From: Hahella chejuensis KCTC 2396
GTDB lineage: Bacteria; Pseudomonadota; Gammaproteobacteria; Pseudomonadales; Oleiphilaceae
Reading direction: 5' to 3'
DNA length: 64,000 nt
NCBI RefSeq assembly: GCF_000012985.1
Contig: NC_007645.1
Span: forward strand, 682,001-746,000
Made by a program: the position numbers and the translations under genes. Below, piece by piece: positions 7,006 to 39,690 of the stretch. The notes under the pieces were generated by a model that made no database searches, had not been told where the DNA came from, and saw only the letters and a list, made by a program, of their open reading frames with translations. The first letter of the stretch is position 1. The number at the start of each line of letters is the position of its first letter.

Positions 7006-8367
7006 TTAATGTGCGGGATTTAGCGTAGTGGGCAGATCTTCGTCCTGAGCTGCGCCGGTGACGTCAGGGGGACCCTGGCGGATCAACTTGCGCATGAAGT
7101 ACAGATAGACGCCGAACAGCAGGGAGTACACTGCGACAAACAGAATCAGCGTAGACATGACTTGCGAGGCCGGCAGCGGCGACGTCACATCCATGGTGCG
7201 CACCAGTCCCTGCACCAGCCAGGGCTGACGACCGACCTCGACCACGTACCAGCCCGCCAGGGTGGCGATGACCCCCGCGGGAATCATCAGGCGAGAGAAG
7301 TTCAGCAGCAGGCGGTGATCGAACAGACGGCCCTTGCGGCGGGCCCAAAAGCCCAATACGCCCAGCAATAGCATTAGCCCACCCAGCGCCAGCATGATGC
7401 GGAAGGAAAAGAACACCACGGCGACGGGCGGCCGGTTTTCCGGCGCCACTTGATCCAGTCCGGCGATTTCGCCGTTGATGTCATGAGTCAGAATCAGGCT
7501 GGCGGCCTTGGGAATAACGATCTCGAAATCATTCTTGGCTTCCTTTTGGTTGGGTAGCGCGAACAGGCGGAACCCCGCGCCCTGTTCGGTTTCCCATACC
7601 GCTTCCATGGCGGCCACTTTTACTGGCTGGTGCTCATGCACATTCAGACCGTGCATGTCCCCCGCCAGAATCTGCAGCGGCGCCAGAACCAGAATCGCCC
7701 ACATGGAGATGGAAAAGCCGCTTTTGGCGAACTCGGTATGCTGCTTCCGCAACAGATAGATCGCATTGACGCCGGCGAACAACAGCGACGCAGACAGAAA
7801 ACTGGCCAGCAGCATATGAGTCAGTCGATAGGGGAAAGAAGGGTTGAAGATCACTGCCCACCAGTCTGTCGGATGGAATACGCCGTCAACGATTTCATAG
7901 CCAGCCGGGGTGTGCATCCAGGAGTTGGCCGCCAGAATCCAGAAGGCGGAAATCATGGTGCCGACGCAGACCACGCAGGTAGCCATGAAATGCACGCGAG
8001 GCGAGACTTTCTTCCAACCGAACAACATGATGCCGAGGAAGCCTGCTTCCAGAAAGAAAGCTGTGAGCACTTCATAGGTCAGCAGGGGACTCAAAACGGG
8101 CCCGACTATCTCTGAAAAGCGACTGAAGTTGGTTCCAAATTCATAAGAAAGCACGACGCCGGAGACGACGCCCATGCCGAAGGTGATGGCGAAAGGTTTC
8201 TGCCAGAAGCGCGCCTGTTGCAGGTATACCTGGCGACGAGTCTTGAGCCAGAGTCCTTCCATCAGCGCCAGATACAGCGACAGCCCGATGGTGATAGTGG
8301 GAAATATGATGTGATAACTAATCGTGAATGCGAACTGGAAGCGTGACAGTAACGCGGGATCAGGCAT
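7006..8367 (-). CDS. cioA: Cyanide-insensitive bd-type quinol oxidase subunit I
   Basis: 453 residues, the haem-bearing subunit that oxidises ubiquinol and reduces oxygen to water. His19 (YHIIFP), the His in PYRLTHMLL and the Met in SFRIM are the haem b595/b558 ligands; GRQPW and the GDMHGLNVHEHQPVK quinol-site region are present. The Q-loop between these is short, as in CioA of Pseudomonas rather than E. coli CydA, so a cyanide-tolerant enzyme is expected. GGAGGA precedes the ATG; the start overlaps the small gene at 8360 by eight bases. Confidence 0.93.
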   Translation of the reverse strand: MPDPALLSRFQFAFTISYHIIFPTITIGLSLYLALMEGLWLKTRRQVYLQQARFWQKPFAITFGMGVVSGVVLSYEFGTNFSRFSEIVGPVLSPLLTYEVLTAFFLEAGFLGIMLFGWKKVSPRVHFMATCVVCVGTMISAFWILAANSWMHTPAGYEIVDGVFHPTDWWAVIFNPSFPYRLTHMLLASFLSASLLFAGVNAIYLLRKQHTEFAKSGFSISMWAILVLAPLQILAGDMHGLNVHEHQPVKVAAMEAVWETEQGAGFRLFALPNQKEAKNDFEIVIPKAASLILTHDINGEIAGLDQVAPENRPPVAVVFFSFRIMLALGGLMLLLGVLGFWARRKGRLFDHRLLLNFSRLMIPAGVIATLAGWYVVEVGRQPWLVQGLVRTMDVTSPLPASQVMSTLILFVAVYSLLFGVYLYFMRKLIRQGPPDVTGAAQDEDLPTTLNPAH

Positions 8368-8518
8368 TTTGCTCTCCTCCCTCGAATTGTAGGCGTGAGG
8401 TTCTGAGCGCGGCTTTGCGGGAACGTCGATTGCGTTGCAGCACTGGGGCGAGGGTCATGCCACAAGCTAACAGAATGACGGCGGAAACGGAAAGCAGATC
8501 GATTAACCAGGCGCTCAT
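8360..8518 (-). CDS. Small single-helix membrane protein leading the cio operon
   Basis: A 52-residue frame with one transmembrane helix (about 4-25) and a basic tail rich in Arg. GGAG stands eight bases before the ATG. Its last codons and stop contain the cioA ribosome site and overlap the cioA start by eight bases, so translation of the two is probably coupled. It is the first frame after the sigma-54 promoter at 8649. I know no named family for it; a leader-coupled oxidase accessory peptide is one option, a chance frame the other. Confidence 0.55.
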   Translation of the reverse strand: MSAWLIDLLSVSAVILLACGMTLAPVLQRNRRSRKAALRTSRLQFEGGEQNA

Positions 8519-8648
8519 ACGAATACTCCTATCTCTTATTACTTCAAAGGTTCTATGACTTCACAACTTTGATTTCGCCGCTTCGACTGAGGTGATCGCT
8601 TGTCACTATGGATGCGGCTGGGTATGAAATTCGCTTTGCAGGAATAAG

Positions 8649-8664
8649 AGCAACATGCGCGCCA
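8649..8664 (-). promoter_or_regulatory. Sigma-54 promoter of the cio operon
   Basis: Read on the minus strand, TGGCGCGCATGTTGCT matches TGGCACG-N4-TTGCW with exact GG-N10-GC spacing and one mismatch. Predicted start near 8638, about 120 bases before the small gene at 8518. Both palindromes at 8728-8778 lie upstream at about -97 and -131, where a sigma-54 activator would bind. Confidence 0.72.
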
Positions 8665-8727
8665 ATCACAAAATGCGCCGAGACGCCTTGATGTACGGCA
8701 ATTTTTTCCTAATTTTGGGTTCTGGGT

Positions 8728-8778
8728 GTAAACTTCGTTTACTGTTTTTGGGGAGGCTGGCGTAAACAAAGTTTACGC
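8728..8778. promoter_or_regulatory. Paired palindromic activator sites between cio and the kinase gene
   Basis: Two perfect inverted repeats of the same design: GTAAAC-TTC-GTTTAC (8728-8742) and GTAAAC-AAA-GTTTAC (8762-8776, extended to GCGTAAAC/GTTTACGC at 8760-8778). Their centres are 34 bases apart. They sit at enhancer distance from the cio sigma-54 promoter and directly before the kinase gene (start 8787), so the neighbouring response regulator probably binds both to activate cio and to control its own operon (inference). Confidence 0.7.
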
Positions 8779-8786
8779 TTGGAGAC

Positions 8787-10655
8787 ATGAATACGATTCA
8801 GCTTTTTTCCGTTTCCATGTGGACCACGGTGTTGTCCGCCGGTGGCGTCTCACTGTGGCTGTGGTCGCGGCGTCGGCAAGAGCCCGCGCTGAGGGCATTG
8901 TCCGGGTTTTGCCTGTCGATGGCAATCTGGTGTTTTGGCCATATCCTGGTGCTTCAGGACCATCAAGCGGTGGGGACGCTGATCCTGCTGGGCAACCCAT
9001 TAATGCCGACTGCTTTCCTCCATTTTGTTCTGCTATGGCTGGGCGATCCCCTGGATCTCCCGCAACAGCTTCGTAAACTCGCCCCCTTGTTCTACTTCAC
9101 TGCAGTGGCGGTTGTGTTGGCCAGCTGGGTGACGGGCGGCGGCTACATTTCTCCCTGGATGCAGTTTGAGGGCTTTTTTCATCTGGCTTTCACCGGCTGG
9201 TTGAATCTGGCGTACACCGTTGCGATTGGCGTTGTCGGGCATTTGCTTTTGCTGATGGCGTTCCGGCGCAGCAAAGGTAATCTTAGACGCTCCATTACCG
9301 CAATGTTTATCACTGGCGGCTGGGGATTCACCCTTTCCACCAGTTTTATTTTCCCTTCGCTGGATATCAACCTGTTCCCCTACGCGATGCTGGCGCTGCC
9401 CAGTTACGCCGTGCTGGTGGTATACAGCGTGGTGCGCTATCGCCTGGTGGAGGTGAATCGCTGGGTGAATCAGGCGGTGATCTGGCTGGCGTTGCTCGCC
9501 ACCAGTATGCTGGCCATGTCGCTGATTCTGGCGCTGCTGGCGCCCCTGGGACTGGAGGAACTGGCGCAGGCGCCGCTGAGTCAGCTGGTGGTTTACTCCG
9601 GTATCTTGCTGGTGTTCGCCTGGTTGGCGTACGGGCCCGCCAAAGAGTTCGCCGACCGTCTGGTGTATCCGGGGGCGGTGCTGGATAAGTCTACGTTGGA
9701 TCAATGGGTCACCCGTCTCAATGCGGTAAGAGGCTGGGGAGAGCTGCGCCAGACGGCGGAGCAGCTTTGGTTGAGAAAGAGTGGTGTGGCCGCCAGTGTG
9801 AATATCGACGGTCGTTTCGATTACCCACAGGGACCTGTGTTCGTCTGCGAAAAGCGGGAGCAGTGGGATTGCCGCTTGCAGGGCTGGGAGGACGTAGCGC
9901 CGTCTCATCAGCGTCTGGCGGAATTTATGGCGAAACTGTTGCCGTCCGCCTGTGCGACTTTGGAGCGTTCATTGTTGTTGGCTGAAGCGGAGCGCAAACG
10001 TTTGGAGCAACAACACTTGGTGGAGCTGGGCGGCCTGACGGCGGCGATTGCTCACGAACTTCGCAACCCTCTGAATATCATCACCATGGCGGCGGCGCAG
10101 ACCGATCCACGCATCCGCGAGCATATTTCCAAGCAGGTGGAGCGGGCGGAGCTGTTGATCAAGGACGTACTCACCTACGCGGGCCAGATTCGCCTGGAGC
10201 TGAAGCCGACCAACCTGTATGCACTGACGGCCGCCACCGTGGCGCAGATTCGGCAACTGCACGGGGTGGAAATAGCACTGCAGGCTCCTGAAGAAGTCTG
10301 GCTATCCGTTGATCCACAACGTCTGCAGCAAGTGTTGATCAACCTGTTGGATAACGCCGCCGCCTTTGTCAGGCAAATACCGCTGGGCCGGATTCTGGTG
10401 GCGGTGACGCATGATGAGCATGGCGTCTTGATAGCGATTCATAACAACGGACCGGCGGTGCCTGAAGCGATGAAGCCGCGCCTGTTTCAGGCCTTTGTCA
10501 GCAAAAGAGCGGGCGGGAGCGGATTAGGATTGGCGATAGTCCGACGCATCGTCGACGCTCACCGTGGCGAGGTCTGGCATAGCGATGAAGAAGGGTGGCC
10601 GGTTAGCTTCATGATTCGCCTTCCTCTGGAACAGAATGAAAAGGAAACAGCATGA
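8787..10655 (+). CDS. Seven-helix sensor histidine kinase, PrsK-like
   Basis: 622 residues. The first 285 hold about seven or eight transmembrane helices of the HisKA_7TM type, ending in VVYSVVRYRLVEVNRWVNQ. Then comes a degenerate GAF-like stretch (about 300-400), a HisKA dimerisation domain with phospho-acceptor His423 (IAHELRNPLN) and an ATPase domain with N-box NLLDNAA and G-box GGSGLGLAIVRR. This layout is that of PrsK, the kinase paired with sigma-54 activator PrsR. Its stop overlaps the start of the response regulator by four bases (ATGA). The stimulus is unknown; divergence from the oxidase operon suggests a respiratory signal. Confidence 0.85.
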   Translation: MNTIQLFSVSMWTTVLSAGGVSLWLWSRRRQEPALRALSGFCLSMAIWCFGHILVLQDHQAVGTLILLGNPLMPTAFLHFVLLWLGDPLDLPQQLRKLAPLFYFTAVAVVLASWVTGGGYISPWMQFEGFFHLAFTGWLNLAYTVAIGVVGHLLLLMAFRRSKGNLRRSITAMFITGGWGFTLSTSFIFPSLDINLFPYAMLALPSYAVLVVYSVVRYRLVEVNRWVNQAVIWLALLATSMLAMSLILALLAPLGLEELAQAPLSQLVVYSGILLVFAWLAYGPAKEFADRLVYPGAVLDKSTLDQWVTRLNAVRGWGELRQTAEQLWLRKSGVAASVNIDGRFDYPQGPVFVCEKREQWDCRLQGWEDVAPSHQRLAEFMAKLLPSACATLERSLLLAEAERKRLEQQHLVELGGLTAAIAHELRNPLNIITMAAAQTDPRIREHISKQVERAELLIKDVLTYAGQIRLELKPTNLYALTAATVAQIRQLHGVEIALQAPEEVWLSVDPQRLQQVLINLLDNAAAFVRQIPLGRILVAVTHDEHGVLIAIHNNGPAVPEAMKPRLFQAFVSKRAGGSGLGLAIVRRIVDAHRGEVWHSDEEGWPVSFMIRLPLEQNEKETA

Positions 10656-12013
10656 GCGCAGCGAAAATTTTAATAGTGGATGATGAAAGCGCCTTTTGCG
10701 AGCTGTGCGCATTATGGCTTGAGCAAGCGGGATACGAGGTCAGCAGTTGCGGCGACGCAGAGTCGGCGCGACGCCTGTTCAATGAGCAGGACTTTGACCT
10801 GGTATTGCAGGACCTGGCGTTGCCGCCGACCTTCCTGCCGGAAGAGGGACTGCAACTGATCGCACTGTACGCGGACACCCCGGTGGTGGTGTTGACGGGG
10901 CACGACGAAAAGGAACTGGCGATTAAGGCGATGCAGGCGGGCGCCTGGGATTTTATCGGCAAGCCTGTCGATCCGGATATGTTGCGGGTGGTGGCGCAAC
11001 GCGCCATCGAGCGGCGACGTCTGGCGAAGGAAGTGGAGCGCCTGCGGCGGGTGGTGGGGCGTCCCCCGGAGTCCGATGATTTGGGTTTGATCGGCGCCAG
11101 CGCGAGCATGGACGCCCTGCGCGAATTAGTCCGCCGTATCGCCCCCACCGACGTGCCGGTATTGATTCAGGGCCCCAGCGGTACCGGTAAAGAAGTGATC
11201 GCCCAGGCGTTGCACCGTCTGAGCCAGCGTTCGGGAGAGGCGTTTATTTCCGTCCACTGCGGCGCCATTCCAGGCGAACTGCTGGAAAGTGAACTTTTCG
11301 GCTATAAAAAAGGCGCGTTCACCGGCGCGGACAAAGATCGCAAGGGATTGTTGTTCATGGCGGATAAAGGCACTTTGTTTCTCGACGAAATAGGGGAAAT
11401 GCCCCTGCCCATGCAGGTGAAACTGCTGCGGGTGCTGCAGGAAGGATGTTATTACCCGGTTGGCAGTCGGGAAGTGGAACATATTGATGTGCGTCTGGTC
11501 AGCGCCACTAACCGGAACCTGCCTAAAGCGGTTGAGGAGGGTAGTTTCCGTGACGATCTGTACTATCGGATCAAGGGGCTCACCTTGATGACGCCTCCAC
11601 TACAGGAGCGGCGCTCGGATATTCCGCTGCTGGTGCGCCACTTTTTGCAAGGCATGGCGCGTAAGAGCGGGCGCGAGTTACAGGTGGACGGCGAAACCAT
11701 GCGCTGGTTCTGCGCGCACCCCTGGCCCGGCGCCGTACGGGAGCTGAAAAACACCCTGGAAAGCGCCGCCGCTATTTGCATGGGAGACGTGCTGACCATG
11801 CAGGAAGTCAACCTGATCAGCGGAACCGCCTCCGTCCCGACAGCGCAAATCAAAGGCGACACGCTGGACGAACAAGTCAGTTCACTGGAGATCCACCTGA
11901 TCCAACAGGCCCTGAGCGAACAGCAAGGCAACAAAACCCGCGCCGCCGCGCAATTAGGGCTTACAAGACAGGGGTTGCTGAAGAAAATGGCGAGATATGG
12001 GGTGGGGGGCTGA
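10652..12013 (+). CDS. Sigma-54-dependent response regulator, PrsR-like
   Basis: 453 residues: receiver domain (1-120) with phospho-acceptor Asp54 (QDLALPP), AAA+ domain with Walker A GPSGTGK (174-180), intact sigma-54-contact loop GAFTGA (221-226) and Walker B LFLDE (242-246), and a C-terminal Fis helix-turn-helix (about 420-450, [17 protein letters not shown]). The DLxLPP pattern and EGL near the phosphorylation site resemble PrsR. It should activate sigma-54 promoters; the one at 8649 with paired palindromes is the obvious target, and the PEP-CTERM gene promoters in the window are possible further targets. Confidence 0.88.
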
Positions 12014-39674: not shown

Positions 39675-39690
39675 TGGCATGCTGGTTGCT
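39675..39690 (+). promoter_or_regulatory. Sigma-54 promoter of PEP-CTERM gene 1
   Basis: TGGCATGCTGGTTGCT has the -24/-12 pattern with exact GG-N10-GC spacing and one consensus mismatch. Predicted start near 39701, 81 bases before the gene. Upstream, TTACA-N5-TGTAA (39619-39633) and GACAAA-N5-TTTGTC (39634-39650) are inverted repeats at about -75 and -59 that could bind an activator. The remaining part of the gap 39389-39618 shows no gene. Confidence 0.78.

What the first reader, a model, noticed from the sequence alone, without database searches (positions are those of the whole stretch)
8649..8778. A sigma-54 promoter with paired enhancer palindromes controls the cyanide-insensitive oxidase, next to a PrsK/PrsR-like pair
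The minus strand carries TGGCGCGCATGTTGCT with exact -24/-12 spacing before the cio operon. Two identical-design palindromes, GTAAAC-N3-GTTTAC, sit at about -97 and -131 and directly in front of the divergent kinase-regulator operon, whose regulator has an intact GAFTGA loop. Known regulators of cio genes (RoxSR, Anr) are not sigma-54 activators, so a sigma-54 two-component switch for a bd oxidase would be a new regulatory link. Motifs are seen; the regulator-target pairing is inferred.
Basis: partly seen in the sequence, partly recalled or inferred. Interest (0 to 1): 0.82.

Follow-up and report, generated by a model that had tools for sequence, protein, structure and literature searches.

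The report
Sigma-54 switch for cyanide-insensitive oxidase
Marine bacteria related to Hahella and Marinomonas carry a backup respiratory oxidase next to a private sensor-regulator pair, and the control elements between them (a sigma-54 promoter and two matching regulator sites) are conserved across genera, so this looks like a dedicated switch for the oxidase.

Summary
Observation confirmed; main interpretation well supported. At 8649-8664 (minus) a sigma-54-type promoter precedes short-Q-loop (CIO-type) cydAB. Two exact GTAAAC-N3-GTTTAC palindromes lie 34 bp apart upstream; the 7.2 Mb genome has one other exact copy. All 43 fetched loci with a true kinase homologue have divergent cydA. In 390 genomes of the order, the 26 with the kinase are the 26 with the highest-scoring cydA. 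The pair scores 19/24 or more in 52 of 53 distinct upstream regions and at most 15 in 40 kinase-free cydA controls. TGGC-N7-TTGC lies 69-80 bp from the proximal site in 41 of 55 loci, TTGT in 5; controls have neither. Four distant loci of another class keep the layout, but before a DUF2269 operon instead of cydAB. 'PrsK/PrsR-like' is not supported. Novelty is reduced by a mapped sigma-54 promoter at the Acidithiobacillus ferrooxidans cyd operon (PMC5506826). New in the searches made: this dedicated kinase-regulator circuit, its conserved enhancer pair, and a WCxGH kinase signature that goes with cydAB. Signal unknown; no expression data.

The parts
8649..8664 (-). sigma-54 -24/-12 promoter element TGGCGCGCATGTTGCT of the cio operon; start site predicted near 8638
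   Evidence: TGGC-N7-TTGC at 69-80 bp from the proximal palindrome in 41 of 55 loci, TTGT variant in 5 more; 0 of 40 controls
8728..8742 (.). proximal palindrome GTAAACTTCGTTTAC, predicted regulator (enhancer) site, centre about -97
8762..8776 (.). distal palindrome GTAAACAAAGTTTAC, predicted regulator site, centre about -131, ending 10 bp before the kinase start codon
8689..8692 (-). conserved ATCA element 28 bp upstream of the -24 box, in the stretch where an IHF site is expected (role inferred)
   Evidence: ATCA 24-32 bp upstream of -24 in 43 of 55 loci; the strict IHF consensus is not met in Hahella
8360..8518 (-). small 52-aa single-TM protein gene, first gene of the cio operon, overlapping the cydA start
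   Evidence: no Pfam family above cut-off
7006..8367 (-). cydA/cioA, bd-type oxidase subunit I with short Q-loop
   Evidence: PF01654, 564.5 bits
5999..6994 (-). cydB/cioB, bd-type oxidase subunit II
   Evidence: TIGR00203 above cut-off; PF02322
5886..5999 (-). 37-aa hydrophobic ORF after cydB, CydX/DUF2474-like by position only
   Evidence: no Pfam hit
8787..10655 (+). histidine kinase: 7TM N-terminus (HisKA_7TM), further TM-type helices, small alpha/beta domain, HisKA and HATPase
10652..12013 (+). NtrC-type response regulator: receiver, sigma-54 AAA+ domain with GAFTGA, Fis-type HTH

Best explanation
A dedicated two-component system controls a CIO-type bd oxidase. The membrane kinase (8787-10655) detects an unknown signal of respiratory stress and phosphorylates the NtrC-type regulator (10652-12013). 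The regulator binds the two palindromes (8728-8742, 8762-8776), probably as a higher-order complex on one face of the helix (34 bp, about 3.2 turns), and drives sigma-54 polymerase at 8649-8664 to transcribe a small membrane protein gene, cydA and cydB. The sites end 10 bp before the kinase start codon, so binding probably also represses the kinase-regulator operon. In Marinomonas and Oceanospirillum an FNR/Anr-like box just past the promoter probably blocks it without oxygen. Shown here: anatomy, conservation, linkage, specificity against controls. Inferred: binding, activation, autoregulation, FNR effect, signal.
For: Divergent cydA beside the kinase in 43 of 43 loci (two pairs are the same sequence) and in two genomes outside the order. 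Kinase in 26 of 390 genomes of the order; those are the 26 best cydA genomes, 582 bits or more, next best 529. Linked CydA lies on one side of a branch, 22 rows against 24 controls, support 100/99. Pair score 19/24 or more in 52 of 53 distinct regions; 40 controls at most 15, 212 first-order shuffles at most 18. With the two best palindromes taken freely, their spacing is 31-35 bp in 42 of 43 loci. TGGC-N7-TTG[CT] in 48 of 53 cases and 0 of 40 controls. In 9 divergent loci motif blocks are 85-100% identical, spacers, loops and flanks 26-34%. Receiver residues and GAFTGA intact in 16 of 16. One rpoN match. In four distant loci of another class the best pair in about 10 kb again lies just before the kinase with a GG-N10-GC element exactly 67 bp away, 4 of 4.
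Against: No expression, footprint or start-site data. L009 (same genus) keeps the promoter but has lost the pair. Three Oleispira-type loci have CCGC at -12, five loci TTGT, L085 and L164 have no convincing -12, and three loci with TTGC lie at odd distances (61, 111, 124 bp). The pair search allowed only 31-36 bp, so those calls cannot show the spacing; the selection of TGGC and of the best pair flatters those blocks, whose nine loci were chosen among those with the promoter at the usual distance. Controls are 40 of the 168 kinase-free cydA genomes, picked by me. Strict IHF consensus missing in Hahella. No sigma-70-like promoter found for the kinase. In another class the same circuit faces a different operon, so the pairing with cydAB is not universal.
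Confidence: 0.89

Rival explanations
1. The palindromes are operators for autoregulation of the kinase-regulator operon only, and cio is run by another promoter and another regulator (RoxSR/Anr type).
For: The distal site ends 10 bp before the kinase start codon, and the pair stays at the kinase even where cydA is absent. FNR-like boxes stand next to the promoter in 30 of 53 loci. In P. aeruginosa cioAB answers to RoxR (PMC5506826 passage) and Anr (recalled).
Against: A -24/-12 element is held at 69-80 bp from the proximal site in 47 of 55 loci if TTGC, TTGT and ATGC at -12 are counted, while the sequence between is not conserved; it also lies at 67 bp in 4 of 4 loci with another target operon. 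0 of 40 controls have TGGC-N7-TTG[CT]. The regulator is a GAFTGA sigma-54 activator. A pure operator would not need a fixed distance to a promoter of the divergent operon.
Confidence: 0.07
2. The -24/-12 match is a chance hit; the conservation reflects common descent of a short intergenic region.
For: In the window alone the motif is not over-represented; many of the loci are close relatives.
Against: In 9 divergent representatives flanks and spacers are at 26-34% identity while the motifs are at 85-100%; 0 of 40 controls carry the motif.
Confidence: 0.03
3. It is a PrsK/PrsR system whose real targets are PEP-CTERM/exosortase genes.
For: The regulator's best NCBIfam hit is the PEP-CTERM response regulator, 387 bits.
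Against: Below the 502.6 cut-off; the kinase scores 47 bits against a 300 cut-off, catalytic half only; the genome has its own PrsK (728 bits) about 10 kb from XrtA at 2.82 Mb.
Confidence: 0.01

Closest known systems
Acidithiobacillus ferrooxidans cyd operon (PMC5506826; listing, section 26 and passages seen)
   Same: bd oxidase operon with a 5'RACE-mapped sigma-54 promoter (TGGCACAGAGATTGCT), a sigma-54 regulator gene (AFE_0957) predicted upstream and a predicted IHF site
   Different: It also has a sigma-70 promoter and RegA binding; the authors mention perfect palindromes upstream of the cyd promoters without showing them, so whether they resemble the pair here is unknown; the regulator was only predicted. 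Orthology of AFE_0957 with this regulator could not be tested (one search found no match to the published promoter in 41 genomes, which may not include Acidithiobacillus)
Pseudomonas aeruginosa / P. pseudoalcaligenes cioAB
   Same: CIO-type bd quinol oxidase, A then B
   Different: Regulated by RoxR (PMC5506826 passage) and Anr (recalled); no sigma-54 control of cioAB appears in the passages read of PMC6825135, PMC6627978, PMC6368324 and PMC11049912
NtrBC / AtoSC / ZraSR sigma-54 two-component systems
   Same: Regulator architecture receiver-AAA+(GAFTGA)-Fis HTH; paired upstream sites (recalled for NtrC)
   Different: The kinase has a 7TM sensor; the regulator is below the cut-off of all 25 NCBIfam models shown (of 103 that matched)
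PrsK/PrsR of the PEP-CTERM/exosortase system
   Same: PrsR is the regulator's best NCBIfam hit, sub-threshold
   Different: No match of the kinase's sensor half to PrsK; the genome has a separate PrsK near XrtA

Membership tests
sigma-54-dependent promoter with NtrC-type activator | -24 GG and -12 GC with exact spacing | tested here: met
sigma-54-dependent promoter with NtrC-type activator | activator with AAA+ domain and GAFTGA loop | tested here: met
sigma-54-dependent promoter with NtrC-type activator | upstream activator sites conserved with the activator | tested here: met
sigma-54-dependent promoter with NtrC-type activator | rpoN present in the genome | tested here: met
sigma-54-dependent promoter with NtrC-type activator | rpoN- and activator-dependent transcription | not testable with these tools
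   needs mutants
sigma-54-dependent promoter with NtrC-type activator | IHF site between enhancer and promoter (common, not obligatory) | tested here: inconclusive
   30 of 52 with at most 1 mismatch against 9.5 expected, but not in Hahella; ATCA in 43 of 55
CIO-type bd oxidase | CydA lacks the long Q-loop extension | tested here: met
   E. coli bd-I residues about 315-369 have no counterpart in the alignment; 453 against 522 aa. Criterion from PMC5322542 passages
CIO-type bd oxidase | cyanide-insensitive activity | not testable with these tools
   needs enzyme assay
PrsK/PrsR | kinase scores above TIGR02916 cut-off | tested here: not met
   47.3 against 300 bits
PrsK/PrsR | regulator scores above TIGR02915 cut-off | tested here: not met
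   387.4 against 502.6 bits
HisKA_7TM histidine kinases (PF16927) | N-terminal 7TM domain above gathering score | tested here: met
   48.2 against 28.6 bits

The most novel reading that the evidence does not exclude
This is one branch of a modular sigma-54 circuit: a 7TM kinase, its regulator and a fixed enhancer pair with a promoter 67-80 bp away, whose divergent target operon was exchanged (cydAB here, an epimerase/DoxX-DUF2269 operon in another class). With the oxidase came a change in the sensor: an intramembrane W-C-x-G-H signature (W48, C49, H52, beside H79 and H152) that reads the respiratory chain by binding heme, quinone or a ligand such as cyanide or NO. W48, C49, H52 and H152 are invariant in 18 of 18 cyd-linked kinases and H79 in 17; W48, C49 and H52 are replaced in 4 of 4 unlinked ones, where H79 is kept in 3 and H152 in 2. 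No solved structure matched the sensor half among the 60 of 66 hits shown.
Probability: 0.35. Interest if true: 0.74.

Novelty: new variant of a known kind. Interest (0 to 1): 0.6.

Why it matters
Regulation of cyanide-insensitive oxidases is known mostly from RoxSR and Anr in Pseudomonas (recalled). A sigma-54 switch with its own membrane sensor means that one oxidase clade has carried a private control circuit through several families of an order and two genomes outside it. It offers an experimentally tractable sensor, possibly of respiratory inhibition, with one predicted target. With Acidithiobacillus it suggests that sigma-54 control of bd oxidases is more widespread than the Pseudomonas picture, and the distant loci show how such a circuit can change its target.

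Tried and rejected
PrsK/PrsR assignment: rejected. Other regulon sites in Hahella: the third exact palindrome and seven 1-mismatch sites were read. The first motif used there was too strict and would have missed the cio promoter itself; with a looser score (9 of 12 or more, within 250 bp) one weak match appears, beside L050's site, which is 1-mismatch and lies inside an ORF. The first sigma-54 scan had an index error and found nothing; it was repeated correctly. IHF: suggestive only. Sigma-70 promoter for the kinase: none found. The structure model is moderate (mean pLDDT 74.9, pTM 0.44); no coordinates were read, so histidine geometry is untested. No fold search ran.

Full report
Setting. The window lies at 682001-746000 of a complete 7.2 Mb genome. 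Its close relatives include Hahella sp. HN01, whose kinase is 94% identical. The divergent region 8519-8786 separates a minus-strand operon (small TM ORF, cydA, cydB, a 37-aa ORF) from a plus-strand pair (kinase, regulator).

Observation. The promoter motif alone would not stand out from chance in the window. The genome has 3 exact palindromes, 2 of them 34 bp apart here; with one mismatch allowed it has 10 sites against 16 for the reversed control, so single near-copies mean nothing. The other exact copy and the seven 1-mismatch copies give no convincing sigma-54 promoter nearby. The pair therefore has one predicted target in this genome.

Gene identities. CydA and CydB match PF01654 and PF02322. 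CydA lacks the long Q-loop stretch of E. coli bd-I and is 453 aa, the feature by which PMC5322542 recognises the CIO type (passages; section 14). The regulator has a receiver, a sigma-54 AAA+ domain and a Fis HTH. Its nearest solved relatives are NtrC-family regulators such as 4l4u and 1ny5. The kinase has a HisKA_7TM N-terminus above Pfam's cut-off. The model shows, by my reading, about nine membrane-type helices, with low confidence after residue 190, then a small mixed domain, HisKA and HATPase.

Linkage. All 43 loci with a true homologue of the kinase (L005-L047; two pairs are the same sequence) have cydA divergent next door. Locus L048 matched only in the kinase domain and shows no cydA. 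Among 97 near relatives 13 have the kinase, own genome included; in a class sample 1 of 369, the own genome; in an order sample 26 of 390; in a phylum sample 8 of 299. In the order sample 194 of 390 genomes have a cydA at E 1e-80 or better. The 26 best of them (582 bits or more) are exactly the 26 kinase genomes, and the next scores 529. A maximum-likelihood tree places 22 linked CydA (a selection of those held) on one side of a branch with support 100/99, apart from 24 kinase-free ones. Two gammaproteobacterial genomes outside the order (L164, L165) keep kinase, regulator, cydA and cydB together.

Control elements. After removal of 18 duplicate rows there are 53 distinct upstream regions, and 40 controls taken upstream of cydA in kinase-free genomes of the same order, 40 of 168. 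The best palindrome pair, sought at 31-36 bp, scores 19 or more of 24 in 52 of 53; controls reach at most 15 and 212 first-order shuffles at most 18. Without the spacing limit the two best palindromes are 31-35 bp apart in 42 of 43 loci. The exception, L009, keeps the promoter but has lost the pair. With L164 and L165 added (n=55), TGGC-N7-TTGC at 69-80 bp from the proximal site is in 41, TTGT at -12 in 5, ATGC in 1. TTGC at another distance is in 3, CCGC in 3, and no convincing -12 in 2. TGGC-N7-TTG[CT] occurs in 48 of 53 cases and 0 of 40 controls. In nine divergent representatives with the usual layout the palindrome arms are 86% identical and the -12 box 85%, while loops, spacers, the middle and the flanks are 26-34%; the -24 value of 100% is fixed by the selection. 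ATCA stands 24-32 bp before the -24 box in 43 of 55. A near-IHF match is seen in 30 of 52 against 9.5 expected, and not in Hahella.

The distant branch. Four genomes of another class carry a distant pair (kinase 30-33%, regulator 47-49% identity) with no cydA in the 9.5-10.9 kb fetched. In all four the best palindrome pair of the stretch (17-20 of 24, GTTAAC type, 33-34 bp apart) lies between the kinase and the divergent operon, and a GG-N10-GC element with TTGC at -12 lies exactly 67 bp from the proximal site. The divergent operon holds an epimerase-like gene and a DUF2269 gene in 4 of 4; Pfam confirms DUF2269 and an epimerase with a DoxX-like tail in the two loci tested. The pair scores alone are near the shuffle maximum; the position and the constant 67 bp are what make them persuasive. 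So the circuit is probably older than its link to cydAB, and the target was exchanged on one branch (inferred).

Mechanism. The simplest reading is an enhancer pair bound by the neighbouring regulator, contacting sigma-54 polymerase; the centre of the proximal site is 82-86 bp from the -12 element in most loci. The pair abuts the kinase start codon, so autorepression is likely (inferred). Where an FNR box is present it lies just downstream of the predicted start and would block transcription when FNR is active, that is without oxygen (inferred, using the recalled role of Anr at cio). The signal is unknown. Within the kinase, W48, C49, H52 and H152 are invariant in 18 of 18 cyd-linked proteins and H79 in 17. 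W48, C49 and H52 are replaced in all 4 unlinked homologues, which keep H79 in 3 and H152 in 2. H52, H79 and H152 fall in predicted helices of the membrane part. This makes a heme, quinone or ligand sensor a fair hypothesis, not a result.

Known or new. Seven text searches looked for a sigma-54/RpoN link to cio, cyd or bd oxidases, one for known cio regulators, one for PrsK/PrsR and one for the genera. Several lists were capped (40 of 431; 15 of 51; 15 of 16), and most papers were seen as listings only; passages of eleven were sought, and PMC12194929 gave none. The only precedent found is A. ferrooxidans: its cyd operon has a 5'RACE-mapped sigma-54 promoter, a second sigma-70 promoter, a predicted IHF site, a predicted sigma-54 regulator AFE_0957 and palindromes mentioned but not shown (PMC5506826). 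In A. baumannii cydAB is induced by sulfide; the passages read describe the sigma-54 activator FisR as driving the sulfide-oxidation operon, and do not tie it to cydAB (PMC7315123). The general link is thus in print; this two-component circuit, its paired sites, its conservation and the kinase signature were not found in these searches, which cover open-licence papers only.

Noticed in passing
   Followed up: partly
8360-8518 (minus): 52-aa single-TM ORF between promoter and cydA. A comparable small TM ORF lies there in 37 of 53 linked loci against 2 of 40 controls by a script that cannot see ORFs overlapping cydA, so Hahella's own is not among the 37.
   Followed up: partly
L166-L169: Same kinase-regulator circuit with paired sites and a sigma-54-like element at 67 bp, but before an epimerase/DoxX-like and DUF2269 operon of unknown function instead of cydAB.
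   Followed up: partly
G000:C1:2817191-2829847 (outside the window): This genome has a true PrsK (728 bits) and an XrtA exosortase about 10 kb apart, with lower-scoring exosortase-like hits at 3.52 and 6.62 Mb.
   Followed up: no
39675-39690 (plus): Another sigma-54-like element, TGGCATGCTGGTTGCT, 1 mismatch.
   Followed up: no
L009 upstream region: A genome of the same genus that kept the sigma-54 promoter but has short CCAAACTAT-type repeats where the palindrome pair would be.
   Followed up: partly
L015, L079, L082, L086, L087: Family f34 genomes share a TTGT instead of TTGC -12 box at the usual spacing.
   Followed up: partly
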